Shown here: positions 17,807 through 34,902 of the stretch, piece after piece
Numbering within the stretch: position 1 is the first letter of the stretch
How the letters are laid out: each line of letters starts with the position of its first letter
Source of the DNA: a virus
Virus record (IMG/VR): IMGVR_UViG_3300044800_000271
Span: 1-64,000 of that record
DNA length: 64,000 nucleotides
Direction: 5' to 3' (one strand)
Made by a program: the position numbers and the translations under genes
Notes under the pieces: generated by a model
The model's input: only the letters and a program-made list of their open reading frames with translations
What the model was told of the DNA's origin: nothing
The model's database searches: none

Positions 17807-18511
17807 ATGAAAGCGCTTATCGGAGTCATGTCCTGCGAACGAGACTCGGCCAACGGCTGCCACGATGCCATCCGGCGCACGTGGGTGACCCGCATGGTAC
17901 CGGGGGAACTTGACTACAAGATTTTCGTCGGGCAGGGCGACCGTGCTCTTGCCCCGGATGAGGAGCGGGTGGACGTTCCGGACGGCCAGCCATGGCTGCC
18001 TGAAAAGGTGCAGGAGATGCGAAAATGGGCGCTTGAACACGGGTACGAGTTCATGTTCAAGGCTGACCGCGATACATACCTCTCGCCGAGGCGATTGATC
18101 GCCAGCGGCTTCGAGAAATTCGACTACGTCGGGCACTTCCCGATGCACCCGCAGGAGGGCTTCATACCCGTGGTGGGGGATTGCCGGGGCTTCTACACGT
18201 ACGCCTCCGGGGGCTGCGGGTACTGGCAGAGCAAGCGGGCGATGGAGGCCATGCTCGCCGCGCCGCTCGATGAAAAGCGGCTCGACAACAAGGGCATCCC
18301 GGCCGAGGACCTCTGGGTTCCCAACGTGCTCTTTCCGCTCGGCATCCTCGGCTACCACAATCCGAGATACCACTTCAAGGGGGATCGGCTGCAACTGTAC
18401 GGCTATGACGGCATAACGGTGCATCTCTCCAAACGGACCGGCTCCTACGAGCCAAGCTGGATGGATGCGGCCCATGCAATTTCACTGCGAGACTGCGGCG
18501 ACACGCTATGA
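17807..18511 (+). CDS. GT31-like glycosyltransferase, copy 1
   Basis: A 234-residue protein with the GT31 (Galactosyl_T) pattern: N-terminal strand ALIGVMSCERD, RRTWV near residue 25, the DxD metal motif in KADRDTYLSP near residue 86, the acceptor loop GGCGYWQSKRAME near 140 and AEDLWVPNVLF with the catalytic acidic pair near 166. GT31 enzymes are inverting beta-1,3-galactosyl- or N-acetylglucosaminyltransferases, mostly known from eukaryotes; here it acts presumably in the cytosol since no membrane anchor is present. One of five paralogues in this cluster. Its stop overlaps the start of copy 2 by four bases. Confidence 0.75.
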   Translation: MKALIGVMSCERDSANGCHDAIRRTWVTRMVPGELDYKIFVGQGDRALAPDEERVDVPDGQPWLPEKVQEMRKWALEHGYEFMFKADRDTYLSPRRLIASGFEKFDYVGHFPMHPQEGFIPVVGDCRGFYTYASGGCGYWQSKRAMEAMLAAPLDEKRLDNKGIPAEDLWVPNVLFPLGILGYHNPRYHFKGDRLQLYGYDGITVHLSKRTGSYEPSWMDAAHAISLRDCGDTL

Positions 18512-19191
18512 GGCTCCTGATCGCAATCAAAAGCTGCGAACGCGACATGCTGAACGGCTGCCACACGGCTATCCGCGAGACATGGGGAAAGGATTTTCCC
18601 CCCAATGTTGACGTGCGATTTTTTGTCGGCAACGGGAGCGCGTCATTAAAAAGCGACGAGGTCCGGCTTGCCGTTGGAGATGACCTAACGGCCCTTCCCT
18701 CGAAAGCCCGTGAAATGGCGGGATGGACGGTTGAAAACGGATATGACCCCGCATTCTTTTGCGATGTGGACACATTTGTCAAGCCCGAGCGACTCCTCTC
18801 GTGCGGTTTTGAGGGTTACGACTATTTCGGATATTTCGGGAATGGGTTCCCTCCGGGTGTTCAAATCCCGACATTTGGCGACCACAGGCTCGGCGACATA
18901 GCGGTTTGGGCTTACGCTTCGGGAGGGGCGGGCTATTTCCTGTCCCGCCGTGCGGCCGAAGTGATTTCCAAGATGGTGCCAGCGCACTATGCGGAAGATG
19001 TTAGCGTGGGCCACGCTCTCGGACCGCTTATCGCGGCGGGCCAACTGACGGGATTCGCCTCCCAGCAATTCGACAATTATGTGGTTTGGCACCACTGCAC
19101 TTGGGGCAAGACACGCTATACATGGCCGAACAGCGTGGGATTCAATCCGGCTTGGATGTACGAAAGCTACAGGAAAGGACAGGGGGTCTAA
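18508..19191 (+). CDS. GT31-like glycosyltransferase, copy 2
   Basis: A 227-residue paralogue of copy 1. The same landmarks are visible: LLIAIKSCERDMLNGCHTAI, RETWG, a metal motif CDVDTFVKPERLL near residue 88, ASGGAGYFLSRRAAE near 145 and YAEDVSVGHALGPL near 165. The acceptor-side C-terminal half differs from copy 1, suggesting a different acceptor. It overlaps copy 1 by four bases and ends one base into the fucosyltransferase start, so the three genes form one coupled unit. Confidence 0.75.
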   Translation: MRLLIAIKSCERDMLNGCHTAIRETWGKDFPPNVDVRFFVGNGSASLKSDEVRLAVGDDLTALPSKAREMAGWTVENGYDPAFFCDVDTFVKPERLLSCGFEGYDYFGYFGNGFPPGVQIPTFGDHRLGDIAVWAYASGGAGYFLSRRAAEVISKMVPAHYAEDVSVGHALGPLIAAGQLTGFASQQFDNYVVWHHCTWGKTRYTWPNSVGFNPAWMYESYRKGQGV

Positions 19192-19973
19192 TGGTTGTGC
19201 GGCTCCATGGTGGCTTGGCAAACCAGATGTTTCAATACGCTTTTGGTGAGTCGGTCGGCGCTGTCCGGAAGGAAGAGGTTTTCTATAATCGCATCGGCCC
19301 GGAAAGGCTTGACGTTTTCAACATAAAGCCCATCAAGTTTGCTCCGGAATCGGGTCCTCTTTTCGGGGACATCAGTTGCTATGATGAAAAAGTCTACAGC
19401 GCTCCGAACGGCACGTCGTTCGTCGGATGCTGGCAGACCGAGAAGTATTTTGACGAGAACATGGTTCGCCGGGAATTGTCGTTTAAGAACAAGCCGTCTG
19501 AGGAATCCCAAAAAACGGCGGACACCATCGTGGCTGCTGGTGCGACGAGCGCGTTCCTTCATGTCCGCAGGGGAGACTATGTCTTTGACTACAATCAAAG
19601 GTTTCACGGCATGCCAACGATGCGTTATTACAACGAGGCCGTCGAACGCATCCGCGCACGCCACAAAGATGCGCGTTTCTGGGTCTTTTCTGACGATCCC
19701 GATTGGTGCCTTGCCAATTTTCCGAGCGATTTCACGGTCGTGGGCCACAATAAGATCATCAGCCGGGACATCCCCGGACGGGAACACGAGGACATCTGGC
19801 TCATGAGCCTGTGCCATCACGGCACTATAGCGAATAGCTCATTCTCGTGGTGGGGCGCTTGGTTTGGCACGCAACCGGACAAACTTATATTTGCCCCCAA
19901 GCAATGGTTTATAGCCACCCATGTAGGCAGCAGTGACATCGTTCCTGAAAGGTGGACCAAACTTGACAACTGA
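19191..19973 (+). CDS. GT11 alpha-1,2-fucosyltransferase family enzyme
   Basis: A 260-residue GT11 enzyme. Motifs in order: GGLANQMFQYAFG at residues 6-18, the donor-binding HVRRGDY near 124 and SSFSWWGAWFG near 216, all hallmarks of inverting alpha-1,2-fucosyltransferases that use GDP-fucose. The length is near that of bacterial relatives. A Gmd/Fcl pair capable of making GDP-fucose lies 3.5-7 kb downstream in the same cluster. Given the GDP-heptose genes nearby, a GDP-6-deoxyheptose donor is also possible. ATG 19191 abuts the previous stop; longer in-frame starts lie inside the GT31 gene. Confidence 0.87.
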   Translation: MVVRLHGGLANQMFQYAFGESVGAVRKEEVFYNRIGPERLDVFNIKPIKFAPESGPLFGDISCYDEKVYSAPNGTSFVGCWQTEKYFDENMVRRELSFKNKPSEESQKTADTIVAAGATSAFLHVRRGDYVFDYNQRFHGMPTMRYYNEAVERIRARHKDARFWVFSDDPDWCLANFPSDFTVVGHNKIISRDIPGREHEDIWLMSLCHHGTIANSSFSWWGAWFGTQPDKLIFAPKQWFIATHVGSSDIVPERWTKLDN

Positions 19974-20835
19974 TCTCATCATCGGAATGGCATCCGGGTA
20001 CAACTGGGATATGCTGTACCCGTTTGTAGTGTCCCTGCGAAGAACGGGCTATACTGGGCGCTGCGTTCTAGTTTTTGGCACCGCAACCGTAGCTGAAAAT
20101 AACCCAAAACACAAAGCAGCCAACGAAGACCCCTCCCTGTTGCTGGAAAAACTAGCCGAATATGGTATTGAGACGCTAGACATCGGATCATTCGATGAAC
20201 ATCCGAATGTGTTTCGCTTCAAAGTTATATCGGAGTATATCAAGGGCGCAAAAGACCTGCGCTACGTTCTAACCGCCGACACGAGAGACATCGTATTCCA
20301 GTCTAATCCGTTCGATTGGCTAGCACGGAACCTCGGCAGCAGCAAATTGGTAGTCGTGTCCGAAGCCATACAACTCAAACGCTGTTGGCCGTGGAGGGCT
20401 ATTACTCTTGAGGCTTTCGGTCATGACGTTTACTACTCCATGGAAGAAACTGAAATCTGTAATGCTGGAGTCATCGCAGGTACTCCTGAAGACGTAAGCG
20501 AACTACTTCTTGGGGTTTACAAAATGTCCAACACAGATATGCGGCTCAAACGCTTCAAGGTCAGCTATGATGACATGCCGTCTGACCAAGCGGCTATGAA
20601 CATCATCATCCGAAAGGAGCCTTGGGCGTCTAAAACAAAAATTGCCACTGTCTGGGATGGCTTTGTTTTCGGGGCTCACCATCTCAACAACATATCGGGC
20701 TTGTCGTACAGGATGGAGGGTTCGTCTAACTACTGCTTTCAACTTCATGAAGCATCAAGTCCGGTTACAATTCTCCATCAGTACGACGGAGTAAAAGAGT
20801 GGCAAGAAGCTATACGGAAAAAATTCAATGGATAA
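19963..20835 (+). CDS. glycosyltransferase-like protein, GT-A fold (GT8-like)
   Basis: A 290-residue protein. IIGMASGYNWDMLYPFVVSL opens like a GT-A transferase. LTADTRDIVFQSNPF near residue 103 carries a D-x-x-D metal site as in GT8-related enzymes, NAGVIAG near 167 and SDQAAMN near 207 match the second half of that fold. TTG 19963 is preferred over GTG 19933 because AAAGGTGG precedes it at good spacing; it overlaps the fucosyltransferase end by 11 bases. Donor and acceptor unknown. It is less GC-rich than the GT31 genes, hinting at a separate origin within the cluster. Confidence 0.65.
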   Translation: MTTDLIIGMASGYNWDMLYPFVVSLRRTGYTGRCVLVFGTATVAENNPKHKAANEDPSLLLEKLAEYGIETLDIGSFDEHPNVFRFKVISEYIKGAKDLRYVLTADTRDIVFQSNPFDWLARNLGSSKLVVVSEAIQLKRCWPWRAITLEAFGHDVYYSMEETEICNAGVIAGTPEDVSELLLGVYKMSNTDMRLKRFKVSYDDMPSDQAAMNIIIRKEPWASKTKIATVWDGFVFGAHHLNNISGLSYRMEGSSNYCFQLHEASSPVTILHQYDGVKEWQEAIRKKFNG

Positions 20836-21559
20836 GTCCACAGAAAAGATACTGAAACTCGTCTCGGAAAAAGACTGGACCGACTACTGTGTGATGAGGC
20901 AAAGGTGGTATGACGACGGTCGAGAAGACACACTCAGGATAGACTATCTCCTCGACGCTGACAGCGTTGTATTTGACGTTGGCGCGTACCAAGGGGGGTG
21001 GACAGCAGACCTATTGAAACGATGCGGCGTCATCCCCGCTGCCGTGTACTTGTTTGAGCCGGTTTTTGAGTTTCATCAGACGGCGAGCAAAAGATTTGAG
21101 AACACGCCGCAAATTAAGGTATTGAATTTTGCTCTTTCTGACAGAGACGGTGAGGCTTTTATAGACGTTGACGGGGGGAGTTCAAGCCTTCATCTTTCAG
21201 GTGAAACTCTTACAAAAACTCAGGATATTGTGGGGTTTATTCAACAGGAGAGGTTGGCAAAGATTGATCTAATCGTAGATGATGGCTCTCATAACCCTGT
21301 TCATCAAGTCCTGACAATTAAAATGTTGTTTCCGTTGCTCGGTCCAAAAGGCATTTATATCTGCGAAGACATCCGTCAGGATGGGGGATGCGATCCCGCC
21401 TCTATCCGAAACAGTCTCACAGAATCCGGTTACAAGTTTGAGATGAAGGAATTCCGAGCCAAACCAGAATTTGCAGATTTAAGCAAACCAGCCGACACTA
21501 TGTGGATAGTGCTCCGGGCGGAAGAAAACGTCAAAAAGTTTAGGGGGGACAAATGTTAA
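20828..21559 (+). CDS. FkbM-type SAM methyltransferase, apparently chimeric
   Basis: A 243-residue class I methyltransferase. The first part (VVFDVGAYQGGWTADLLKRC, YLFEPVFEFHQ, LNFALSDRDGEAF) is the FkbM pattern, usually sugar O-methylation. Where FkbM proteins continue with KID-x-I-K-I-D-x-E-G, this one reads KIDLIVDDGSHNPVHQVLTI, then LFPLLGPKGIYICEDIR. That ending is typical of a different methyltransferase branch in which DGSH binds metal or substrate. The two halves look spliced by recombination. It probably methylates a glycan made by neighbouring enzymes. It overlaps both neighbours by seven to eight bases. Confidence 0.72.
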   Translation: MDKSTEKILKLVSEKDWTDYCVMRQRWYDDGREDTLRIDYLLDADSVVFDVGAYQGGWTADLLKRCGVIPAAVYLFEPVFEFHQTASKRFENTPQIKVLNFALSDRDGEAFIDVDGGSSSLHLSGETLTKTQDIVGFIQQERLAKIDLIVDDGSHNPVHQVLTIKMLFPLLGPKGIYICEDIRQDGGCDPASIRNSLTESGYKFEMKEFRAKPEFADLSKPADTMWIVLRAEENVKKFRGDKC

Positions 21560-22146
21560 CTGATGCTCAAATTAGTGAAATCTTGAAGGGCGAAGCGCCA
21601 CCAGAGGCTTACAAGCATGCGACGCTTATAGAGTATGGCAAACGGTTTCAGTTGGATTTACTCATTGAAACCGGGACGCACTTAGGCGACGGGGTCGAGG
21701 CAACGAAGAGGCACTTCTCTGAGGTGTACTCTATCGAGGTCGGCCCGACTTACTTCAAGAACGCAGAGAAGAGATTTGAAAACGACACCAATGTTCACAT
21801 CTTGTTGGGTCACAGCATAGATGTCCTGAGACGACTCCTGCCGACCCTCACCAAGAAGCCGTTGTTTTACCTTGACGCACATTTCCGATGGGACTTGACC
21901 ACCCCAGCCAATTTGGATTGTGATCACAGCCCGGTCAAGGGGGAGCTAAACACAATCTTCACTCTGTGCCCTGACAGCGTCATCATTATAGACGACGCTC
22001 GGCTATTCAACGGCGGGAATGTCGGATGTGCTTGCTCGCCAGCACTTGGAGAATTGGAGCGTCTCGTTGCGGAAAAGAAGCCCGATTGGGTATTCGAAAT
22101 TGAGCGTGACATGATGCGCCTTCATCCGCGACAAGAGGGCAAGTGA
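21553..22146 (+). CDS. class I SAM-dependent methyltransferase-like protein
   Basis: A 197-residue Rossmann methyltransferase-like protein. LLIETGTHLGDGVEATKRHF holds the glycine-rich SAM site near residue 36, VYSIEVG gives the acidic residue that binds the ribose, and FYLDAHFRWD and SVIIIDDARLF are later strands. The pattern is common in sugar-cluster methyltransferases. Second of three consecutive methyltransferase genes; it overlaps the preceding gene by seven bases and the next by four. Substrate inferred to be a glycan residue. Confidence 0.7.
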   Translation: MLTDAQISEILKGEAPPEAYKHATLIEYGKRFQLDLLIETGTHLGDGVEATKRHFSEVYSIEVGPTYFKNAEKRFENDTNVHILLGHSIDVLRRLLPTLTKKPLFYLDAHFRWDLTTPANLDCDHSPVKGELNTIFTLCPDSVIIIDDARLFNGGNVGCACSPALGELERLVAEKKPDWVFEIERDMMRLHPRQEGK

Positions 22147-22721
22147 TGGATTTCATTTCATATAGTCAAATAGGGCAAGACACATTCGTTTATGACCAGT
22201 TGGTGAAGCCCTTCAACAACCTGTTGGGAACTTTTCTTGACATCGGGTGTAGCGACGGCGTTGCGATCAACAACACTCTAGCGTTGGAGAGGTTGGGGTG
22301 GCGGGGACTTCTCGTTGATATTGATCCCGAGGCGATCAAGAAGTGCAAAATCAACCGGACGAGCCCCGCTATCTTGGGCGACGCAATGACAATGGATTGG
22401 TCTGCGGTCTGCGAAGAGTACTGCCTCGGAAAATCCATTGACTACCTGTCGCTGGACATCGACGACTTAGCCATTCCGGGTACAGATTGGGCTGTCCATG
22501 CCCCCCGCTGGGCCGCTATGGTTTTATCCGTGCTGGAGAATCTTCTGGCTTCGGGATTCTCGTTCCACGCCATAACTTGCGAGCATAACGGATATCTAGA
22601 CGGCGGCGAGGGTAAAGCAGCCATGCAGGAGCTTCTGAAAGCGAATTCTTACAGGTTGTTTGCGGAAGGCACATATCCCCCTTCTGGGTGGTCACAAGAT
22701 GATTTCTGGCTCAAATTATAG
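22143..22721 (+). CDS. FkbM-like methyltransferase
   Basis: A 192-residue protein with the N-terminal [10 protein letters not shown] box typical of the FkbM branch, then [17 protein letters not shown] as the SAM-binding loop, [12 protein letters not shown], and YLSLDIDD at the position of the catalytic/ribose strand. FkbM enzymes O-methylate sugars or polyketides. Third of the methyltransferase set, followed after 19 bases by the nucleotide-sugar dehydratase gene. Length is short but all core strands appear present. Confidence 0.75.
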
Positions 22722-22740
22722 CCACTCAAGAGTGGAAAAA

Positions 22741-23727
22741 ATGAAAAAAGCACTCATCACAGGTATCACCGGGCAGGACGGATCGTATCTGGCGGAACTC
22801 CTGCTGGAGAAGGGCTACGAGGTCCACGGCATCATCCGCCGCTCCAGCAGCTTCAACACAGGCCGGATAAACCACATCTTCGACCGCCTGCACCTGCACC
22901 ACAACGACTTGACCGATGGCAGCGCCCTAAGCCGCCTCATGGGGGAGGTCAAACCAGACGAGGTTTACAACTTGGGGGCGCAGAGCCACGTGCGCGTCAG
23001 CTTCGACATTCCCGAGTACACCGCCGACGCGGACGCCCTCGGGACGCTCAGGCTCCTTGAGGCGGTCAAGGCGCAGTGCCCGGAGTCCAAGTTTTACCAA
23101 GCGTCGTCCAGCGAGATGTACGGAAAGGTGCTGGAAATCCCCCAGACCGAAAAGACGCCGTTCTACCCCCGGAGCCCCTATGGCATAGCCAAGCTCTTTT
23201 CGTACTGGACGGTGGTGAATTACCGCGAGATGGGCATGTTCGCCTGCAACGGCATCCTGTTCAACCATGAGTCTCCCCGCAGGGGCGAGACTTTCGTGTC
23301 GCGCAAGATCACCAAGGCCGCCACTAGGATACGGCTGGGGCTGCAAGACGAACTCCTGCTCGGCAATCTGGACGCCAAGCGCGACTGGGGATACGCCAAG
23401 GAGTACGTGGAGGCCATGTGGCTCATGCTCCAACAGGGCACCCCGGAGGACTTTGTCATCGCCACGGGCGAGACGCACACCATACGGGAGTTCTTGGATG
23501 AGGCGTTCGGATACCTCGAAATGGACTGGACAAAATATGTGGGGATCGACCCCAAGTACTACCGCCCCACGGAGGTAGACCTCCTGCTGGGCGACGCAAT
23601 GAAGGCAAAGACAGTATTGGGTTGGGTGCCCCAAACCAAATTCCGCAGCCTAGTGCGCTTGATGGTGGACTCGGATTTGGTCGATGCCCGCGGGGAGAGG
23701 AACCATGAAAATTCTATTCGCCGTTAA
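22741..23727 (+). CDS. gmd: GDP-mannose 4,6-dehydratase family enzyme
   Basis: A 328-residue extended short-chain dehydrogenase/reductase. NAD(P)-binding [10 protein letters not shown] starts at residue 8, the catalytic SSSEMYG is near 122 and YGIAK (Tyr and Lys) near 147; [10 protein letters not shown] and [10 protein letters not shown] are hallmark Gmd strings. It converts GDP-mannose to GDP-4-keto-6-deoxymannose. The same sequence family includes GDP-heptose 4,6-dehydratases (WcbK/DmhA type), a real alternative because GDP-heptose genes lie in this cluster. ATG 22741 gives the exact family start. Its end overlaps the next gene by 23 bases. Confidence 0.9.
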
Positions 23728-24415
23728 TTCTTGGGATGTGGCCGCCAAACACGGTTTCCACCAAGTGATTCGCGATACTTGGGGCGGGGATGTCACCCCC
23801 GCCGACCTGCGTTTCTTCATGCCCCGAGTGTCGGATCAGCGGTCGCTGCCGGATGAAGTCTTCGTTGACGTGTCAAGAGACTACGATTGCATTTGTCGCG
23901 AAGTTCAAGAAGTCCTTCGTTGGTCCGTTCGGGAAGGATACGACTTCACCATTTTGCTTAGTACCGACTCGTTTCTGATCCCCCAGAAAGTCTTGGCGTG
24001 CGGCTTCGAGAAATATGACTACTCGGGCGACTTCGCGTTTAATGAGACTGTTCCTTTCGGCGAGGTTATGGGGGATACTGTAAACTGCACTTTCAATACA
24101 CAGGAAGGTTACAGGGTACATCGACACCTTTATAATTGGGCTGGTGCCGGGCCTGCGCGAATACTGTCCAGAAAAGCAACCGCCGTGGTTGCCGAAAGGA
24201 CGAAAGAGGCGGAGTACTGGTACGCCGCCGACGACATTATGATCGGACAAATACTAGGGCCGCTCATTAAAAAGGGTGAAATTACCGCTTGGCGCATTCC
24301 CAACTATAACGGCGAAATGGTTTGGCACTACAAGAACTATCCGGAGAACCAGAATACTCCTTACAGCCCATCCACGGGGTGGATGCAAAGGATGTACACA
24401 GAGCACCGGACTTAG
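23705..24415 (+). CDS. GT31-like glycosyltransferase, copy 3
   Basis: A 236-residue diverged paralogue: [42 protein letters not shown] near residue 145 and [15 protein letters not shown] near 173 follow the GT31 plan. At the metal site the usual D-x-D reads [10 protein letters not shown], keeping only one Asp, so activity or metal use may differ. ATG 23705 lies inside the end of the gmd gene. The C-terminus contains Tyr/Pro/Asn-rich sequence around [15 protein letters not shown]. Confidence 0.68.
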
Positions 24416-24428
24416 TGGGGGGTTTACT

Positions 24429-25100
24429 ATGATTTCGCTTTTACATACAACTGTTAGACCGAACGCTTGGAAGACCGCGGCCGACAATTGGTTTCAAAAC
24501 TGCGACCATTCAGGGAACGTAGAGTACGTGCTTGTGCCTGAGAAAAAGCAATTTCCAAGTTTGAGCAATCTGGGGGTTCCGTTCGAGCACCAAGTTGTTG
24601 AGTACAACGGAAACAATCCAACCCCCGTAGGAGGATACAATTTTGCTGCTCAAATTTCTCATGGGGAAGTCCTTGTTCTTGTTGCGGATGATTTCTATTC
24701 CGCACCCCACTGGGACACCAACCTTCTCAATTTGCTAAACGGTAAGCTCGATCAGGAAGTTGCTGTTTGGGCAAACACAAACATGCCTTCTTTTGATCCG
24801 TACTTCATTTCGTTTCCGATTATCACTCGACCGTATTACAAGCGGTATGGCTACTTGTTTTGCCCTGAATATACGTCTTGTTATGCCGACGTGGAATTCT
24901 ATGAAGTCACCGAACTAGATAAAATAGAGATCATTGATGCTCGTAACGTTTTGATGTTCCAACACCTTCGTGGGGGCATAGGCGGCGCATTTCGCGACGA
25001 CGAGGATTATATGAAGCACGGGGGACCCGGAGACCGTAGTGGAGACCTTTACTCTAAACGCAAAGCGGCTGGATTTCCGCGAGAAGTGTTACCACAATGA
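24429..25100 (+). CDS. GT2-like glycosyltransferase
   Basis: A 223-residue GT-A-like protein: ISLLHTTVRPNAWKTAADNW at the N-terminus, GGYNFAAQISHGEVLVLVAD near residue 68, where family 2 enzymes have N-x-A-x-x-x-A-x-G, and a metal site ADDFYS near 87. The C-terminal part (MFQHLRGGIGGAFRDDEDY) may correspond to the catalytic region. ATG 24429 follows a GGGGGG run. It overlaps the next gene by four bases. Sugar specificity unknown. Confidence 0.68.
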   Translation: MISLLHTTVRPNAWKTAADNWFQNCDHSGNVEYVLVPEKKQFPSLSNLGVPFEHQVVEYNGNNPTPVGGYNFAAQISHGEVLVLVADDFYSAPHWDTNLLNLLNGKLDQEVAVWANTNMPSFDPYFISFPIITRPYYKRYGYLFCPEYTSCYADVEFYEVTELDKIEIIDARNVLMFQHLRGGIGGAFRDDEDYMKHGGPGDRSGDLYSKRKAAGFPREVLPQ

Positions 25101-26203
25101 AAGCCACAATCGTTACCACCACCGTCAATATCCCGTCCTTTTTGGGGGGGTACCAGAAAAACGCCAACCAATTCGGGCAGGATGTGAACTTTATTGTTGT
25201 TGGAGATTACAAGAGCGCGGCGAGAACAGCGGAGTACTGCGCCACGATTCCAAACTGTCTATATCTCGATCTGCCAAGTCAGCGGGATTATCTGACACGA
25301 TTCCCGACGCTGCGAGAGCATTTGCCGATCAACTCCGTGGAACGTCGAAACGTGGGTATGATGTTGGCGTACACGACTGGCGCAGATGTAATTATTACGC
25401 TTGACGATGACAATTTAGCAACCGACCAAGACGCTATCGGTCACCACAGAATAGTGGGGACAACAGTGACGCTTCCAACGTACGGCTCTAGCTCCGGATG
25501 GTTCAATGTTTGTTCGTTCCTGAAAGAAGAGAGCGATGTCGAGTTTTATCACCGCGGGTACTCCCCCAAGAATCGGTGGGCAGATTCTTTCGTGACCATG
25601 CAACCCGAACGCCGTAAAGTTGTTGTCAACGCAGGTTTTTGGTTGGACGATCCGGACGTGGACGCCACAACTAGACTGGAAAGAAAAGTCCGGGTTACCG
25701 GATATAAATCAGGTTGGCCGGGTACTATCGCCTTGGCCCGCGGGACTTGGACGCCGTTTGATTGTCAGAACACCGCGTTGACCCGCGAGATCATCCCGGC
25801 TTACTTTTTGAGCCCGTATATTGGTCGGCACTCCGACATCTTCGCTAGCTATGTTATCAATCGGCTTGCAGAACACTTCAATCACGCCATCGCGTTCGGA
25901 GACCCTTGGGTTTTACATGACCGCCATTCACACAATCTATGGAAGGATTTGGATGTAGAACGCGAAGGCATGCAATTGACGGACGGCTTCTGCGATGCCC
26001 TGCGAAAGATTGATATTGCCGCAGACGGCTACCACCAAGGATTCGGGGAAATAATATCCGGATTGAATGCTTGGGCGCGATCTGAAACTCAGCAGAGAAT
26101 CGTTGAAGGTATGCGTCTCTGGCACGGGGCATTCGAAGTATTGGAGGGCACGATGAAAGAGGCACCCATCACTGACATCATCAGCGGGGAGACCAAAGAA
26201 TGA
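25097..26203 (+). CDS. GT75/reversibly-glycosylated-polypeptide-like protein
   Basis: A 368-residue protein with a GT-A core: IVTTTVNIPSFLGG start, RRNVGMMLAYTTGADVIITL followed by DDDN as the metal site near residue 95, and NAGFWLDDPDVDATTRLER near 180. The last resembles the G-x-W-L-x-x-P-D-x-D-A signature of plant reversibly glycosylated polypeptides and related bacterial transferases. Known GT75 proteins interconvert UDP-arabinose ring forms or transfer sugars. The C-terminal 100 residues are helical. It overlaps the preceding and following genes by four bases each, in line with a coupled operon. Confidence 0.62.
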   Translation: MKATIVTTTVNIPSFLGGYQKNANQFGQDVNFIVVGDYKSAARTAEYCATIPNCLYLDLPSQRDYLTRFPTLREHLPINSVERRNVGMMLAYTTGADVIITLDDDNLATDQDAIGHHRIVGTTVTLPTYGSSSGWFNVCSFLKEESDVEFYHRGYSPKNRWADSFVTMQPERRKVVVNAGFWLDDPDVDATTRLERKVRVTGYKSGWPGTIALARGTWTPFDCQNTALTREIIPAYFLSPYIGRHSDIFASYVINRLAEHFNHAIAFGDPWVLHDRHSHNLWKDLDVEREGMQLTDGFCDALRKIDIAADGYHQGFGEIISGLNAWARSETQQRIVEGMRLWHGAFEVLEGTMKEAPITDIISGETKE

Positions 26204-27135
26204 AGAAACGAATCGCAGTAACGGGGGGTTCGGGATTCGTTGGCAAGCACCTAACGAAGAGGCTTGCGCAGAACGAAGGCTACGACGTGGTTTCCCTCAG
26301 CAGCAGTCAATACGATCTGCGCCGCAGAGACCGTGTGGAGGCGATGTTTGACGAGTTGCGGCCCGACATCGTAGTTCATTTGGCCGCTGTTTGCGGTGGA
26401 ATAGGAGCAAACCAGAAGAGTCCGGGAAAGTTCTTCTATGACAACCTGATCATGGGCGTGGAGATGATCGATGTCGCCAAGGAGCGGGGCGTAGAGAAAT
26501 TTGTCCAAGTCGGAACTGTCTGCGCTTACCCCAAGTTCACGCCGTCGCCGTTCACGGAGGACAATCTATGGAACGGCTATCCCGAAGAAACCAACGCGCC
26601 ATACGGAATCGCCAAGAAGGCCCTGCTGGTACAGTGCCAAGCGTACCGCCAGCAGTACGGGATGAACGCAATTTACCTCATTCCGGTAAACCTCTACGGT
26701 CCCGGAGACAACTTCAACCTTGAAAGCTCGCACGTCATCCCCGCGCTGATCCGGAAATGCCTTGAAGCCAAGAAAACCGGAGCCGAGAGCATAACTGTGT
26801 GGGGCACGGGTAGCGCGTACCGAGAGTTCCTGTATGTCGAGGATTGTGCCGAAGCAATCGTTTTGGCCGTGGAGAAGTACAATGGCCTGGAGCCAGTGAA
26901 CATCGGCACGGGATCGGAGATTTCCATGAAGGACCTTGTGGGGGTCATCAAAGAGGTCACGGGTTTCAACGGGGGAATTGTGTGGGATGCTACGAAACCC
27001 GATGGTCAGCCTCGCCGCCGTCTGGACACCTCGCGAGCCCTAGAGACGTTCGGCTTTAAGGCGCACACGACGCTTTCGGAGGGGCTTGGCAAAACCGTTG
27101 CATGGTATACCGAACAAATGCAGGGGACTGTATGA
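26200..27135 (+). CDS. fcl: GDP-L-fucose synthase family epimerase/reductase
   Basis: A 311-residue short-chain dehydrogenase/reductase: GGSGFVGKHL near residue 8, HLAAVCGGIGAN near 64, CAYPKF near 108, YGIAKKA (catalytic Tyr/Lys) near 134 and NLYGPGDNF near 166, all Fcl/WcaG hallmarks. It epimerises and reduces the keto-deoxy product of the Gmd-type enzyme, giving GDP-fucose, or a deoxyheptose if the substrate is GDP-heptose. The usual catalytic Ser before CAYP is replaced by Thr-Val (GTVCAYP), a small deviation. Overlaps the neighbours by four bases. Confidence 0.87.
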   Translation: MKKRIAVTGGSGFVGKHLTKRLAQNEGYDVVSLSSSQYDLRRRDRVEAMFDELRPDIVVHLAAVCGGIGANQKSPGKFFYDNLIMGVEMIDVAKERGVEKFVQVGTVCAYPKFTPSPFTEDNLWNGYPEETNAPYGIAKKALLVQCQAYRQQYGMNAIYLIPVNLYGPGDNFNLESSHVIPALIRKCLEAKKTGAESITVWGTGSAYREFLYVEDCAEAIVLAVEKYNGLEPVNIGTGSEISMKDLVGVIKEVTGFNGGIVWDATKPDGQPRRRLDTSRALETFGFKAHTTLSEGLGKTVAWYTEQMQGTV

Positions 27136-27875
27136 ACGAACTTCTTATCACTGGCGACAAGGGCTACATCGGGTCGCATCTGGTGCAGCTAATGAGCGGA
27201 GAAAGCTGCGACATGAAGGACGGTCAGGACTTCGGGAACATACGCGGCCGCATGTTCGACACTGTGATCCACCTAGCCGCCCACGCGTCCGTGACGCAGT
27301 CTTTGGAAGACCCAGACGAATGCTTGGACAACAATGCTTTCAAGCTGATCCCCTTCCTGACGTGTAACAGGATCGGCAGGCTGGTGTTTTCCTCCACCGG
27401 AGGCGCTATCTACGGCAACCGGCATTTTGCAAAGGAAGAAGAAGCTAGTTGGAACGGGTGCGTATCCCCCTACGGCCAATCCAAGTACCTAGCGGAGCAG
27501 ATCATCCGCCGACTGCATCCGAACCATGTCATCCTCAGGTTCGGAAACGTCTTCGGCGGCAACGACCGCGACAGGAAAGAAGCGGCAGCGCACGCGCACT
27601 TCCGGATGGATAACCCCATAGTGGTCTATGGCGGAACTCAGACACGGGACTTTGTTCACATTGATGTCATTTGCAAGGCGCTCATCAAGGCGACCGTTCT
27701 GGACATGGCGGGAACATTCAATATCGGAAGCGGCGTGGAGACGAGCGTGGCCAGCATAGCCGAAGAGTTTTCTGCAACGAGAAACGTTCCAATAGTTTAC
27801 GAACCCGCACGACTGGGAGAAATAGAGAACGTCTCCTTGGACATCACCCGTGCGCGGGACGCTGGATTGGTATGA
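27132..27875 (+). CDS. NAD-dependent sugar epimerase/dehydratase (GalE-like)
   Basis: A 247-residue short epimerase: ITGDKGYIGSHLV at the N-terminus, HLAAHASVTQSLEDP near residue 58, SSTGGAIYG near 93 and YGQSKYLAEQII (catalytic Tyr/Lys) near 117, then RFGNVFGG. It is shorter than UDP-glucose 4-epimerases (about 330) and has lost the long loops of the substrate domain. Its place between fcl and the heptose kinase gene suggests action on a GDP-sugar of this cluster, but the reaction cannot be assigned. ATGA overlaps on both sides. Confidence 0.78.
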   Translation: MNELLITGDKGYIGSHLVQLMSGESCDMKDGQDFGNIRGRMFDTVIHLAAHASVTQSLEDPDECLDNNAFKLIPFLTCNRIGRLVFSSTGGAIYGNRHFAKEEEASWNGCVSPYGQSKYLAEQIIRRLHPNHVILRFGNVFGGNDRDRKEAAAHAHFRMDNPIVVYGGTQTRDFVHIDVICKALIKATVLDMAGTFNIGSGVETSVASIAEEFSATRNVPIVYEPARLGEIENVSLDITRARDAGLV

Positions 27876-28837
27876 TCATCTCCAGAACACCACTTCGCAT
27901 GAGCTTTGTCGGTGGGGGCACTGATTTGCCCCTGTTCTATGAAAAGAGTCAGGGTGCGGTGATCAGCACGGCGATCAACAAGTACGTCTATATCACGGTG
28001 AACCACAGGTTTGACCACACGATTCGCATCAGCTATTCCCAGACAGAGATCGTGGAGCACATTTCCGATGTCCACCATGACCGATGCCGTGAAGTGATGC
28101 GGGAAGTAGGCGTAGACTCGGGAATCGAAATAACATCCATCGCCGACATCCCGGCAGGAACGGGAATGGGTTCGTCGAGCAGCTTTACAGTTGGGCTTTT
28201 CAATGCTCTTCACGGATTCTGCGGTCGTGTGCAGACAGCCCACCAGCTAGCCGAGCAGGCCTGCAAGCTTGAAATCGACACGCTCAAGGCACCGATAGGA
28301 AAGCAGGACCAGTATGCCGCTGCGTTTGGGGGATTGCATCGCTACCTATTCAACTCCGATGGGTCGGTATTCGTTGATCCCGTGCTGTGCTCACCCGGAA
28401 GACAACGCAGCTTTTTCAACCATCTTATGCTGTTCTACGTGGGGGGGACGCGGGATGCGTCACTGGTACTTGGGGAAATCAAGCCCTCGGAGGACAACCA
28501 CCTACATAGGCTACGCGAGCTTGTTGATGTTTTCTGGCTCGGCCTGACGGGAGATAAGGACATCCGCGAGTTGGGAGAGGTATTAGACTGCGGCTGGCAG
28601 TGCAAAAAGAAAATGTCAGGCGGTATCTCAAACCCGACTATTGACAATTACTATGAGGCGGCTAAGCGAGCGGGAGCCTTGGGCGGCAAGCTTTTGGGTG
28701 CTGGCGGGACAGGATTCCTCTTGTTTTTCTGCGAACCCGACAAGCAAGACGCTGTGCGGAACAGCTTAAACGGCCTTCGCCAGATTGAGTTTGCGCATGC
28801 GCCAGAAGGGAGCAAGATCATATATGTTGGCGGCTAA
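27872..28837 (+). CDS. hddA: D-glycero-alpha-D-manno-heptose-7-phosphate kinase (GHMP family)
   Basis: A 321-residue GHMP kinase. RTPLRMSFVGGGTDLP near residue 5 is the family N-terminal motif, GTGMGSSSSF near 96 is the phosphate-binding loop and GAGGTGFLLFF near 275 is the third motif. The RTPLR-x-S-x-x-GGGTD string is characteristic of HddA and related fucose kinases. It phosphorylates heptose 7-phosphate at C1, giving the 1,7-bisphosphate. Next to gmhA and hddC the assignment is strong. The stop overlaps gmhA by 14 bases. Confidence 0.87.
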   Translation: MIISRTPLRMSFVGGGTDLPLFYEKSQGAVISTAINKYVYITVNHRFDHTIRISYSQTEIVEHISDVHHDRCREVMREVGVDSGIEITSIADIPAGTGMGSSSSFTVGLFNALHGFCGRVQTAHQLAEQACKLEIDTLKAPIGKQDQYAAAFGGLHRYLFNSDGSVFVDPVLCSPGRQRSFFNHLMLFYVGGTRDASLVLGEIKPSEDNHLHRLRELVDVFWLGLTGDKDIRELGEVLDCGWQCKKKMSGGISNPTIDNYYEAAKRAGALGGKLLGAGGTGFLLFFCEPDKQDAVRNSLNGLRQIEFAHAPEGSKIIYVGG

Positions 28838-29402
28838 GCTGTCCGAGTACAGCAAAAACATTCAGGAGTGCTTCAACGAGGTTGATGTGGAAAAGGTGCA
28901 GCGGGCGGCAGAACGATTACTTGCTATCCGCAAGTGCGACGGCACACTTTTCATCATCGGCAATGGCGGAAGCGCAGCCACGGCCTCCCATATGGCTGTT
29001 GATTTCGAGAAAGTCGCCGGGATGCGGGTGGTAAGCCTGACCAATGTGCCGAACATAACCGCATGGGGAAATGATGTCGATTACGAATCGGTTTTCAGCG
29101 AACAATTAAAACGACAGCTTGGACGGCAAGGGCAGCCCGCTGACATCCTCATCGCCATCAGCGCATCCGGGAATTCGCCGAACATCCTGCATGCTGCGGA
29201 ATACGCACGCGGACGGAGCATCTATACGATAGGCTTTATCGGGTTCGGCGGCGGAAAACTGAAAGAGATGGTGGATATCGCTCTTATAATATCTTCCCGC
29301 AACTACGGAGTCGTAGAGGATTTCCACCTTTCTCTAAACCACATCCTGTCGCAATATCTCAAGGACGCCATAAATGAAAGCGTTTCTCCTAGCGGCAGGT
29401 AA
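28824..29402 (+). CDS. gmhA: phosphoheptose isomerase, SIS domain
   Basis: A 192-residue SIS-domain protein, the usual GmhA length. GNGGSAATASHMAVDFEK near residue 47 is the GmhA substrate loop, SASGNSPNIL near 110 the second sugar-phosphate site, and the C-terminal helix has EDFHLSLNHIL with the conserved His. It isomerises sedoheptulose 7-phosphate to D-glycero-D-manno-heptose 7-phosphate, the committed step of heptose synthesis. ATG 28824 fits the family start; an earlier in-frame ATG adds 13 residues. It overlaps hddA and hddC at its ends. Confidence 0.9.
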   Translation: MLAAKLSEYSKNIQECFNEVDVEKVQRAAERLLAIRKCDGTLFIIGNGGSAATASHMAVDFEKVAGMRVVSLTNVPNITAWGNDVDYESVFSEQLKRQLGRQGQPADILIAISASGNSPNILHAAEYARGRSIYTIGFIGFGGGKLKEMVDIALIISSRNYGVVEDFHLSLNHILSQYLKDAINESVSPSGR

Positions 29403-30411
29403 CGGAACCCGGCTCAGACCCCTTACCGACAACATCCCCAAATGCCTAGTTCCGATTCGGGGAACGCCGATGCTTGACATTTGGCTGGACATTTGCCGCC
29501 GAGCGGGCATCAATGAGATTCTGCTTAATTTGCACGCCCATGCGGAAGCCGTCCGCCCCGTGCTTAGCCAATATCACGGCATGAAAATCCGAGTTGTAGA
29601 GGAACCGACTTTGCTGGGCTCCGCCGGAACCATCGGCGCAAACCGAGAATGGATAGCGGGAGACGATTTTTGGGTATTCTATGCGGACGTGCTCACCACG
29701 GCAAATTTGGGCCGGATGCTCGCCTTCCACCGCCAAACGCATTCAACCGCAACAATCGGGGTCTACCAAGTGGGAGAACCCAGCCGATGCGGAATCGCAG
29801 TTTTTGACGATAATTTCGTCGTGCGGGAATTCGTGGAAAAACCCACTGAGCCAAGGAGCGACTGGGCTTTCTCGGGAATCATGGTTGCCACCCCCGAGTT
29901 GCTAAGGGACATTCCGCAACGCACTCCGGCAGACTTGGGATTCGATGTCTTACCTCGGCTTATAAACCGCATGTCGGCTTATCCCATTTCTGAATTCATC
30001 ATGGACATCGGCACTGTGCAAAACTACAGCCTTGCCCAAGATAGGTGGCCGGGGCTTGGCTGGATTGGCGTAGATTTCGACGGAACACTGGCAGTCAGCA
30101 TTTCCAAGCAATGGAACGGTCCCCTCGGGCCGCCAATACCACCGATGGTCGAACGGGTGAAGACGTGGCTTGCCCAAGGCACGGAAGTCCGCATCTTTAC
30201 CGCACGCGTATGTCCCAGAAACAAAGACGGCACGCTGCAATCCGAGTCCGAGATGGACGAACTCAAGAGCCGGATGGGCGATTGGTGCGAGAAGCATTTG
30301 GGAAAGCGGTTTGCTGTAACTTGCGAAAAGGACCACAATATGGCGCAACTATGGGACGACAAGGCGGTGCATGTCGTCCGGGACACAGGGGAAGCATGCG
30401 CATTCTCCTAG
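29374..30411 (+). CDS. hddC: heptose-1-phosphate guanylyltransferase fused to a HAD phosphatase-like domain
   Basis: A 345-residue two-domain protein. Residues 1-225 are a nucleotidyltransferase: LLAAGNGTRLRPLTD near residue 5, PKCLVPIRGTPML near 23, metal Asp in FYADVLT near 107 and EKPTEP near 155, fitting HddC, which makes GDP-heptose from heptose 1-phosphate and GTP. Residues 228-340 are a HAD-like domain: IGVDFDGTLA (nucleophile and acid Asp), FTARV (motif II Thr) and LWDDKAV (motif IV acids). Bacterial pathways use a separate HAD phosphatase, GmhB, just before HddC; this fused domain could supply that step (inferred). Confidence 0.83.
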   Translation: MKAFLLAAGNGTRLRPLTDNIPKCLVPIRGTPMLDIWLDICRRAGINEILLNLHAHAEAVRPVLSQYHGMKIRVVEEPTLLGSAGTIGANREWIAGDDFWVFYADVLTTANLGRMLAFHRQTHSTATIGVYQVGEPSRCGIAVFDDNFVVREFVEKPTEPRSDWAFSGIMVATPELLRDIPQRTPADLGFDVLPRLINRMSAYPISEFIMDIGTVQNYSLAQDRWPGLGWIGVDFDGTLAVSISKQWNGPLGPPIPPMVERVKTWLAQGTEVRIFTARVCPRNKDGTLQSESEMDELKSRMGDWCEKHLGKRFAVTCEKDHNMAQLWDDKAVHVVRDTGEACAFS

Positions 30412-31049
30412 CCATTCAAAGCTGCCACCGCGACCGGGGATGCCATGAACAGATTCGGGACACTTGGATGGGTCTGAATAACGGTGCTATTGATATTAAG
30501 TTCTTCTTAGGCAACCCCAAGGGAGAAGCCGCGGCGGATGAAATTTTTCTCGATGTTCCCGATGATTTGCACTCTCTCTCTTTGAAAACATTGGGGATGA
30601 TTGTTTGGACACTTGAACACGGTTACGACCACTCTTTTAAGGGCGACACAGACACCTATATTTGCATACCACGACTTCTCGCCTCGGGGTTCGAGAAACA
30701 CGACTATTCAGGCTGCGTACAGGGACTAGACCAAGGACGTATAGACGCCGTGTATGGGGGAACGGGGTATTGGCTCAGTCGTCGAGCCATGGAAGCGGTA
30801 GTGAGGGGAAAGGAAAGCAAAGTTGCCGCGGGTTACACCGAAGACTGGTGGGTATGCCAGATACTTGTTCCAGTGGGCATCATCCCGTTCAATGACCCTC
30901 GTTACCGCATCATCACAACCCTTATCGGGCCACAACCGAACAACGATACCATCACATGTCATAATGCCGCGCGCTTTCCTCAGATAAATTTACGGGATAA
31001 AACAAACTTGTACGCCATGCATGAAAAAGCAAAAGGCATACAATCGTGA
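30396..31049 (+). CDS. GT31-like glycosyltransferase, copy 4
   Basis: A 217-residue paralogue: ILLAIQSCHRDRGCHEQI, RDTWMG, the metal motif KGDTDTYICIPRLL near residue 82, YGGTGYWLSRRAME near 119 and YTEDWWVCQILVPVG near 143. All GT31 landmarks are intact, and the N-terminal half is closest to copy 1 by eye. ATG 30396 lies within the end of the hddC fusion gene after an AGGGGAA site. Its stop overlaps copy 5 in a GTGA arrangement. Confidence 0.75.
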   Translation: MRILLAIQSCHRDRGCHEQIRDTWMGLNNGAIDIKFFLGNPKGEAAADEIFLDVPDDLHSLSLKTLGMIVWTLEHGYDHSFKGDTDTYICIPRLLASGFEKHDYSGCVQGLDQGRIDAVYGGTGYWLSRRAMEAVVRGKESKVAAGYTEDWWVCQILVPVGIIPFNDPRYRIITTLIGPQPNNDTITCHNAARFPQINLRDKTNLYAMHEKAKGIQS

Positions 31050-31669
31050 AACTCCTCCTAGCCATCGTAACCTGCGAAAAATTCAAGGCACGAGCCGACG
31101 CCCAGCGGGCGACGTGGGTGCCGCTTGTCAAGGGCGCGGATGTCCGCTTTTTCCTCGCCAAACAAGAAAGGGAACCGCTTCCTGATGAGGTTTTTCTTGA
31201 CGGTTGTCCCGACGACTATCACAGCCTTCCCCTCAAGGTACGGCTGATGCTCCAATGGGCGCTGGCGAACGGATACCAGAAAGTCTGCAAGCTCGACGAT
31301 GATACATGCGTACACCCCCAACGCATGCTCGCTGCTTTGCCAACCAATTCCTATACAGGATTTGTTAATCAAACCCCCCCAAAACCATGGTGTAGCGGGT
31401 TTGCGTACTGGTTGGACGAACGTGCGATGAAGATAGTAGCTAACGCTGAGATTCCTACAGGAGAGTGGGCAGAGGATCGTTGGGTTGGAAGCGTGCTTCA
31501 CGATGCTGGGATTCAACCGTTATACGATAGGCGGCACTGCCTTATTATCCCCGGATGGTCCGTGCCCGATTTTAAGCGGGCTGTAGCTATATGCGATTGT
31601 ACTGGGGATAATGCACACCCGGTCGGACAATCAAAAACTATGTTGGAACTCTATACCATGATGGAGTAG
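31046..31669 (+). CDS. GT31-like glycosyltransferase, copy 5, last gene of the cluster
   Basis: A 207-residue paralogue with a GTG start: LLLAIVTCEKFKARADAQRA, ATWVP, metal motif KLDDDTCVHPQRML near residue 85, SGFAYWLDERAMK near 115 and WAEDRWVGSVLHDAG near 140. It is the shortest GT31 copy. It closes the run of glycan genes that begins at 15581; its end overlaps the minus-strand endonuclease gene by 19 bases, tail to tail. Confidence 0.73.
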   Translation: MKLLLAIVTCEKFKARADAQRATWVPLVKGADVRFFLAKQEREPLPDEVFLDGCPDDYHSLPLKVRLMLQWALANGYQKVCKLDDDTCVHPQRMLAALPTNSYTGFVNQTPPKPWCSGFAYWLDERAMKIVANAEIPTGEWAEDRWVGSVLHDAGIQPLYDRRHCLIIPGWSVPDFKRAVAICDCTGDNAHPVGQSKTMLELYTMME

Positions 31670-33586: not shown

Positions 33587-33907
33587 ATGCGCAAAACTTA
33601 TCCCCAAAAGGTGTACGGCCTCGGCAGCGAAAAGGCCACGGAAACAGTATTTTCCAAGAACCACTTCGCCAGCTTGGCGGCCTATTCCGAGGAGGTCCGC
33701 CAGCAGATCGCCAGTTGGGGGCTGACTCGGGTAGCTGGGTCGATCTACGAATGCCCCGCATCCCACGATTTCTGGCAGGTCAAGGACGGAAAAATACGGA
33801 AATTAGTCGGCTCTGAGGTTGACGATGGGGACTCAATCCCCGGTGCCCCCGAGGATAAGCCAGCCACGTTTTTGGCTAACATTCTTGATGATTTGAGCTT
33901 CGATTAA
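33587..33907 (+). CDS. small hypothetical protein, 106 aa
   Basis: A 106-residue protein (MRKTYPQKVYGLGSEKATET start) with a helical middle, a segment YECPASHDFWQVKDGKIRKL that looks like a small beta hairpin, and an acidic tail. No family is recognised. ATG 33587 lies right after the shared leader hairpin, which marks it as a properly expressed gene. Its stop overlaps the next start by one base, and the downstream gene is a homing endonuclease. Confidence 0.65.
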   Translation: MRKTYPQKVYGLGSEKATETVFSKNHFASLAAYSEEVRQQIASWGLTRVAGSIYECPASHDFWQVKDGKIRKLVGSEVDDGDSIPGAPEDKPATFLANILDDLSFD

Positions 33908-34902
33908 TGACAGACTTTTTCAATTGCGGGGTCTATCGCTGGCTGAACACAATCACCCAGAAATCCTATATTGGGAGTTCTGCCAAAGTACGAGAACGAA
34001 AAGCTGCCCATCTAAGGCTTCTTAAGGCCAACGGGCACCACAGCATCCATTTTCAACGCGCTTGGAATAAATACGGACCCGCCGCCTTTGAATTTGAGAT
34101 GTTGGCGTTTTGCCCAAAGGAAGACCTGTTGTGGCACGAACAGATGGCGATAAACTCGTTCGACGCGGTTAAAAATGGGTACAACGTCATGCCGCTAGCG
34201 GGCAGGAATTCTGGAATCAAACTCTCACCCGCAAGGCGAAAACAACAAAGCGGGATTTCCAAGCGGTTGTGGTTATCAAAGGAATTCCGTGACAGACAGA
34301 GCGCGTCGCGCAAGGCAGCATGGCAATCCAACCACGAACGTAAAAAGCGCCACGGAGAGCGTTTTACTGCGTACAACAAGCAACGGGAATATCCGGCAGA
34401 CATAAAAACACGTATGAGTTTAATCTCTAAAGCTGCTTGGAATGATCCGATTTTTAGAAAAGAACAGCAAGAGCATTGGACCGCCACACGGCGTAAAGCT
34501 CAGGCAGATAGAATGCGTCAAGTACAACTTTTGAGTCCTCGTATTCATAGGGAGTGCGAGCCCTTTCGGGAGATTGTCACTTCATGGCTCCAACAAATGC
34601 CACAGCTAGACGGGGTTACAATTTGGGGGCGGTTACAAGCACTCGGGTATACCAAAGGCGTTCAAGGCGTATATCGTTTTGTGCGTACTTTGCGCAGCGA
34701 ATCGGTTCGAGAACGTCATAATCGTGAATGGAATGAATACCTTACCCATCCGAATGTGTGTTTAACGTGCGGTTCTTCGATTGTCTTGCGCAGGAGGGAT
34801 TTGTGTCTCGCGGGAGTAAGAAAATATTGTAGTTCCGCTTGCGCCAACAGAGCACAAGTTACATGTTTAAAGAAGGAGAAAGCAGCCTCGGCTGCCGCAT
34901 AA
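33907..34902 (+). CDS. GIY-YIG homing endonuclease with zinc-knuckle C-terminus
   Basis: A 331-residue protein. The GIY-YIG domain is CGVYRWLNTITQKSYIGSSA at residues 7-26, with the conserved Arg/Lys helix after it, Tyr in the AWNKYGPAAFEFE segment, and Glu in LLWHEQMAI near residue 78. The middle is basic with several short helices (NUMOD3-like). The C-terminus has CLTCGSS and CSSACANR, a likely zinc knuckle. GC content is below that of its neighbours. It is lodged between two genes that would otherwise be adjacent, starting one base within the preceding stop. Confidence 0.86.
   Translation: MTDFFNCGVYRWLNTITQKSYIGSSAKVRERKAAHLRLLKANGHHSIHFQRAWNKYGPAAFEFEMLAFCPKEDLLWHEQMAINSFDAVKNGYNVMPLAGRNSGIKLSPARRKQQSGISKRLWLSKEFRDRQSASRKAAWQSNHERKKRHGERFTAYNKQREYPADIKTRMSLISKAAWNDPIFRKEQQEHWTATRRKAQADRMRQVQLLSPRIHRECEPFREIVTSWLQQMPQLDGVTIWGRLQALGYTKGVQGVYRFVRTLRSESVRERHNREWNEYLTHPNVCLTCGSSIVLRRRDLCLAGVRKYCSSACANRAQVTCLKKEKAASAAA

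What the first reader, a model, noticed from the sequence alone, without database searches (positions are those of the whole stretch)
29374..30411. HddC fused to a HAD domain may close the GDP-heptose pathway
Seen: the nucleotidyltransferase is followed in the same frame by a domain with DFDGTLA, FTARV and DDKA, all HAD landmarks; gmhA and hddA are directly upstream; no separate gmhB is visible. Known: the pathway is GmhA, HddA, GmhB (a HAD phosphatase), HddC. Inference: the fused domain performs the missing GmhB step, so three phage genes would suffice from sedoheptulose 7-phosphate. Caveat: similar HAD domains of unknown role occur alone in other phages.
Basis: partly seen in the sequence, partly recalled or inferred. 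Interest (0 to 1): 0.8.

Follow-up and report, generated by a model that had tools for sequence, protein, structure and literature searches.

The report
Phage sugar transferase fused to phosphatase
A bacterial virus carries genes for making an activated seven-carbon sugar, and one of its enzymes is fused to a small phosphatase of a common phage type that may have taken over the one step for which the usual enzyme is missing.

Summary
ORF 29374-30411 (345 aa) is an HddC-like nucleotidyltransferase (residues 2-222) joined in frame to a short HAD domain (229-340) with every catalytic residue intact. gmhA and hddA overlap directly upstream, and no GmhB is recognisable in the whole 103.5-kb phage record. 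The HAD domain is not GmhB: it fails all GmhB models and belongs to a large phage family, mostly standalone, found near DNA and nucleotide-metabolism genes (0 of 51 such contigs carry gmhA). (1) Its closest relative (62%) lies in a second phage heptose cluster, also without GmhB, fused there to another enzyme of the cluster. (2) HddC is followed by, or fused to, true GmhB in Jannaschia, Rhizobium and four phage contigs, so this HAD sits in the GmhB slot. (3) GmhB is among its nearest solved structures, although at weak scores. Against it: the module also fuses to portal proteins and others, and many clusters lack gmhB (Campylobacter borrows it from elsewhere). Best reading: a phage HAD recruited in place of GmhB, about 50% likely and unproven. 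I rate it a new variant of a known kind (HddC-phosphatase fusion).

The parts
29374..30411 (+). Fusion protein P0001, 345 aa: HddC-like nucleotidyltransferase + short HAD phosphatase domain
29374..30051 (+). Nucleotidyltransferase domain (res 1-226), HddC-like; 42-43% identical to NTases in GmhA/GmhB/HddA clusters
   Evidence: PF00483 E 3e-34; L048, Jannaschia
30055..30408 (+). HAD domain (res 228-345) of a phage family: DFDGT, TAR, K319, DD
28824..29402 (+). GmhA-like sedoheptulose-7-phosphate isomerase
   Evidence: TIGR00441 best hit, E 2e-28, 99 bits, below the 209 cut-off
27872..28837 (+). HddA-like heptose-7-phosphate kinase (GHMP)
   Evidence: NF049969 best hit, E 1e-38, 133 bits, below the 600 cut-off
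27132..27875 (+). SDR, GalE-like nucleotide-sugar epimerase/reductase
   Evidence: PF01370, TIGR01179 best hit
26200..27135 (+). SDR, GDP-L-fucose-synthase-like; homologue of the HAD partner in L135
   Evidence: NF047922 E 3e-98; 61% to L135
22738..23727 (+). GDP-mannose 4,6-dehydratase-like (could act on GDP-heptose)
   Evidence: TIGR01472 over its cut-off
30396..31049 (+). Glycosyltransferase-like gene overlapping the end of P0001
   Evidence: Galactosyl_T near cut-off

Best explanation
[quoted passage not shown] A standalone phage HAD would have been captured by the cluster and taken over the GmhB step (non-orthologous replacement); three genes would then lead from sedoheptulose 7-phosphate to GDP-heptose, which the nearby GMD-like and GDP-fucose-synthase-like enzymes may convert further. 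Shown here: the fusion, intact catalytic residues, the gene company, absence of a recognisable GmhB in the record, and recurrence of the HAD subtype in a second heptose cluster. Inferred: the phosphatase activity, its substrate, and the identity of the nucleotide and sugar.
For: Catalytic residues intact. The closest HAD in IMG/VR (62%) is in L135, a second phage cluster with HddA, GmhA, transaldolase and GMD and no GmhB found, fused there to a GDP-fucose-synthase-like enzyme. Jannaschia HddC (42% identical) is followed by a GmhB gene overlapping 4 nt; Rhizobium and phage contigs L060, L061, L104 have NTase-GmhB fusions, L078 with one TAG. The HAD model (pLDDT 95) has E. coli and Burkholderia GmhB and KdsC among its nearest solved structures. 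Window and L135 share a changed loop after the nucleophile: S242 where 106 of 131 have Y. No other HAD of this family in the record.
Against: No match to GmhB models; hhalign to phage GmhBs 2%; no TNQ or GDxxxD motif. 0 of 51 contigs with standalone HADs carry gmhA. The module is also fused to portal, ATP-grasp and NUDIX/ADP-ribosyltransferase proteins, so fusion alone is weak evidence. Most phage HddA contigs have neither GmhB nor this HAD; Campylobacter uses a GmhB from another cluster (PMC10680097). The window+L135 clade has only 52% support. Window and L135 are related clusters, so they are not two independent recruitments.
Confidence: 0.5

Rival explanations
1. The HAD keeps the general role it has in other phages, probably a nucleotide or polynucleotide phosphatase, and its fusion to HddC is incidental; the host supplies GmhB.
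For: Standalone relatives lie next to thyX and beside an HD phosphohydrolase and DNA polymerase I; recurrent neighbours read by eye include thyX, thymidylate synthase, RNR and MazG. Weak matches to PNK/PNKP phosphatases. Fused to many unrelated proteins. Host GmhB precedent.
Against: It lies inside the sugar operon in both known cases and is fused to sugar enzymes in both; the loop after the nucleophile differs from standalone members.
Confidence: 0.25
2. The HAD is a sugar-pathway phosphatase for another step, for example clearing GDP/GMP released by the glycosyltransferases or another sugar phosphate in the cluster.
For: In L135 it is fused to a GDP-sugar reductase-like enzyme, not to HddC; short HADs called capsule biosynthesis phosphatases are among its nearest folds and profiles. 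Closest sister cluster L055 has HddA and GmhA but neither HAD nor HddC.
Against: Does not account for the position directly after HddC, where GmhB sits elsewhere.
Confidence: 0.15
3. The HAD is a non-catalytic assembly module, like the C-domain of vertebrate CMP-sialic acid synthetase.
For: That HAD-like C-domain on a nucleotidyltransferase showed no phosphatase activity and gives a tetramer interface (PMC8636478).
Against: All catalytic residues are kept in the window and L135.
Confidence: 0.05

Closest known systems
HddC-GmhB fusion (Rhizobium plasmid protein annotated 'HAD-IIIA family hydrolase'; phage contigs L060, L061, L104)
   Same: N-terminal sugar nucleotidyltransferase, C-terminal HAD phosphatase domain, HddA and GmhA genes nearby
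   Different: Their HAD is canonical GmhB-type (PRK08942/TIGR01656 matches, TNQ motif, GD..D); the window's is a short phage HAD with TAR and DD motifs
Phage short HAD family (phrog_1238, standalone about 110 aa)
   Same: Same sequence family: GWIGVDFDGT..TAR..K..DD, 41-62% identity
   Different: Usually standalone in phages without heptose genes; in the window it is fused to HddC and the loop after the nucleophile is altered
[quoted passage not shown]
   Same: GmhA-, HddA- and HddC-like genes, with a GDP-sugar dehydratase-like gene in the cluster
   Different: GmhB is a separate gene in another cluster (PMC10680097); here a different HAD is fused to HddC
Short HADs BT_0820 (PDB 2obb) and EcbF/BcbF-type capsule biosynthesis phosphatases (e.g. 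1xpj)
   Same: Small capless HAD fold; 2obb is the top structure hit and 1xpj the only convincing PDB profile hit
   Different: Profile scores weak; no function assigned in these records
CMP-sialic acid synthetase with HAD C-domain (vertebrates, some bacteria)
   Same: Nucleotidyltransferase plus C-terminal HAD sugar-phosphatase-like domain
   Different: Different sugar; its HAD domain showed no phosphatase activity (PMC8636478)

Membership tests
GmhB (D,D-heptose 1,7-bisphosphate 7-phosphatase) | Match to curated GmhB models (TIGR00213, NF006506, NF050049) | tested here: not met
   No hit; only TIGR01662 HAD-IIIA at E 0.02, far below cut-off; TIGR00213 none in the record
GmhB (D,D-heptose 1,7-bisphosphate 7-phosphatase) | Motif I DxDG(T/V) | tested here: met
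   DFDGT at 234-238, D234 and D236 invariant
GmhB (D,D-heptose 1,7-bisphosphate 7-phosphatase) | Motif II TNQ and motif IV GDxxxD as in cluster GmhBs | tested here: not met
   Window has TAR and WDDKA; phage cluster GmhBs have TNQ and GD...D
GmhB (D,D-heptose 1,7-bisphosphate 7-phosphatase) | Profile relationship to heptose-cluster GmhBs | tested here: not met
   hhalign probability 2.4%; small alignments, so a weak test
GmhB (D,D-heptose 1,7-bisphosphate 7-phosphatase) | Hydrolyses the 7-phosphate of heptose 1,7-bisphosphate | not testable with these tools
   Needs an assay
HddC (heptose-1-phosphate guanylyltransferase) | NTP_transferase fold with LAAGxGTRLxPLT..PK signature | tested here: met
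   PF00483 E 3e-34; sequence
HddC (heptose-1-phosphate guanylyltransferase) | NF049965 model above cut-off | tested here: inconclusive
   53 bits versus 300; the NTases in complete heptose clusters L060 and Jannaschia also miss the cut-off
HddC (heptose-1-phosphate guanylyltransferase) | Gene company of GmhA and HddA | tested here: met
   Overlapping genes 27872-29402; 42-43% relatives sit with GmhA, GmhB, HddA
HddC (heptose-1-phosphate guanylyltransferase) | Uses GTP and heptose 1-phosphate | not testable with these tools
   Mannose-1-phosphate guanylyltransferase model scores highest, so specificity is open
Phage short HAD family (phrog_1238) | Conserved GWIGVDFDGT, TAR, K, DD pattern over about 110 aa | tested here: met
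   Alignment of 40 and 131 members, phrog_1238 E 3e-6

The most novel reading that the evidence does not exclude
A phage HAD from the nucleotide-metabolism toolbox was recruited as a non-orthologous replacement for GmhB and fused to HddC, giving a three-gene GDP-heptose pathway with a phosphatase family not known to act on heptoses.
Probability: 0.45. Interest if true: 0.65.

Novelty: new variant of a known kind. Interest (0 to 1): 0.5.

Why it matters
It would assign a first substrate to one branch of a common phage HAD family (over 400 IMG/VR loci from two short patterns) that has no assigned function, and would show how a phage completes a nucleotide-heptose pathway without the host's GmhB. 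It makes a specific enzyme prediction that one coupled assay can settle.

Tried and rejected
Full-length structure of P0001: poor (pTM 0.47, residues 160-227 below pLDDT 50), probably because the mixed alignment failed; not used. IMG/VR scans for close relatives of GmhA and of the NTase domain alone: none. Scan of bacterial genomes with the window+L135 HAD profile: one distant standalone, no heptose fusion. Transaldolase in the own record: none. Tree of 132 HADs: too few columns; window+L135 are sisters but with support 52 only. Artefact of two overlapping genes: rejected, no start codon in the linker. A second HAD or GmhB elsewhere in the record: none. Literature for phage GDP-heptose clusters or HddC-GmhB fusions: nothing found in the held library.

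Full report
OBSERVATION. The ORF at 29374-30411 (+) encodes 345 aa exactly as described. Residues 2-222 match PF00483 (E 3e-34). The C-terminal part matches no Pfam family and only grazes TIGR01662 HAD-IIIA (E 0.02), but it matches phrog_1238 (E 3e-6) and phrog_415 polynucleotide kinase, and a profile built here from IMG/VR relatives. In 131 relatives D234, D236, R278, K319, D328 and D329 are invariant and T276 is 99%, so the active site is intact. The linker holds no in-frame start codon. gmhA-like (28824-29402) and hddA-like (27872-28837) genes overlap it and each other. The window lies in a 103,528-base virus record, in which TIGR00213 (GmhB), TIGR01656 and a second HAD of this family are all absent. 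The enzyme names rest on best hits and gene company; all scores are below NCBIfam cut-offs.

WHAT THE NTASE IS. The two nearest NTases found (43% and 42%) sit in full heptose clusters: L048 with a GmhB-GmhA fusion and HddA and a Jannaschia plasmid with an HddA-like kinase upstream, a GmhB gene overlapping the NTase by 4 nt, and a SIS gene nearby. That supports HddC. The mannose-1-phosphate guanylyltransferase model scores higher than the HddC model, and the window has a GMD and a GDP-fucose-synthase-like gene, so GDP-mannose/fucose chemistry is not excluded.

WHAT THE HAD IS. It belongs to a phage family of about 110 aa. IMG/VR scans gave 46 loci with P0001 and 434 with the family alignment, 80 kept. 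Where annotated, standalone members lie next to a helicase, endonuclease, HD phosphohydrolase and DNA polymerase I (BcepSauron), directly after thyX (Vibrio PVA7, Cronobacter Ss1) or near the terminase (Rhizobium phage). None of 51 contigs with such HADs carries gmhA. Some members are fused to portal proteins, an ATP-grasp/GARS-like protein or a NUDIX/ADP-ribosyltransferase polyvalent protein. It is therefore not GmhB by descent: no GmhB model hit in 40 members, hhalign 2% against phage GmhBs, different motifs II and IV.

WHY THE GmhB ROLE IS STILL LIKELY ENOUGH. First, the closest member (62%) is in L135, a different phage contig with SDR, HddA, GmhA, transaldolase (over cut-off), GMD and a protein in which the HAD is fused to a GDP-fucose-synthase-like enzyme; no GmhB was found in that 142-kb record. 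The HAD, both SDRs and the GMD share 61-73% with the window, HddA 42% and GmhA 35%, so the clusters are related and the HAD has been kept through rearrangement, with a different fusion partner in each. These are not independent recruitments. Second, true GmhB occupies the same place elsewhere: directly after HddC (Jannaschia), fused to it in Rhizobium (649 aa, GmhB at 253-423) and in phage contigs L060, L061, L104, and L078 with one TAG inside. Third, the AlphaFold2 model of the HAD (pLDDT 95.4) finds BT_0820 first (E 1e-3), then E. coli GmhB (E 9e-3, prob 0.99, TM 0.50), KdsC and Burkholderia GmhB; scores are weak and GmhB is one of several. Fourth, window and L135 share a changed loop after the nucleophile, S242 where 106 of 131 have Y.

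WHY IT IS NOT SHOWN. The module fuses readily to other things. Of 49 contigs with phage HddA (L135 included), only 13 hit TIGR00213, one of them marginally, and apart from L135 only three marginal partial hits to this HAD were seen, so many phage clusters manage without a recognisable phosphatase of their own, as does the Campylobacter capsule cluster, which uses GmhB from another cluster (PMC10680097). The closest sister cluster by HddA, L055 (62%), has neither HAD nor HddC in its 88 kb. A fused HAD can also be non-catalytic, as in vertebrate CMP-sialic acid synthetase (PMC8636478). The window+L135 branch has support 52. L135 ends at its contig edge just after the HAD fusion, so whether that phage has an HddC is unknown.

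VERDICT. Observation confirmed; interpretation plausible, partly supported, about even odds. The novelty is the phosphatase family in the slot and not the idea of an HddC-phosphatase fusion, which exists already.

Noticed in passing
phrog_1238; L051 3890-4594 (Vibrio phage PVA7): All 40 HAD family members match phrog_1238, named 'phosphoheptose isomerase', and a Vibrio phage gene carries that name, although the protein is a HAD and no SIS domain was found. Probably a database mislabel.
   Followed up: partly
L135 2654-3367: The sister phage cluster carries a transaldolase (TIGR02134 over cut-off) next to GmhA and HddA, which could supply sedoheptulose 7-phosphate.
   Followed up: yes
window 17807-31669: About 14 kb of sugar genes: GMD, GDP-fucose-synthase-like SDR, GT11-type and Galactosyl_T-like glycosyltransferases and methyltransferase-like genes; suggests the phage builds its own glycan, perhaps on a GDP-(6-deoxy)heptose or fucose.
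   Followed up: partly
L060, L061, L104, L078: NTase-GmhB fusions in phage contigs; L061 and L078 read through one TAG and HddA in L059-L061 is broken into two frames, so stop-codon recoding is possible.
   Followed up: no
L195, L281: The phage HAD domain is fused to the C-terminal side of portal proteins in two contigs.
   Followed up: partly
window 33907-34902: Protein begins with a GIY-YIG-like pattern (GVYRWLN...SYIGSS), probably a homing endonuclease; judged from sequence only.
   Followed up: no
L048 (MT835644.1): Recorded as 'Bacteriophage sp.', but the stretch reads like a bacterial polysaccharide locus with GmhB-GmhA fusion, HddC and HddA; may not be phage.
   Followed up: partly
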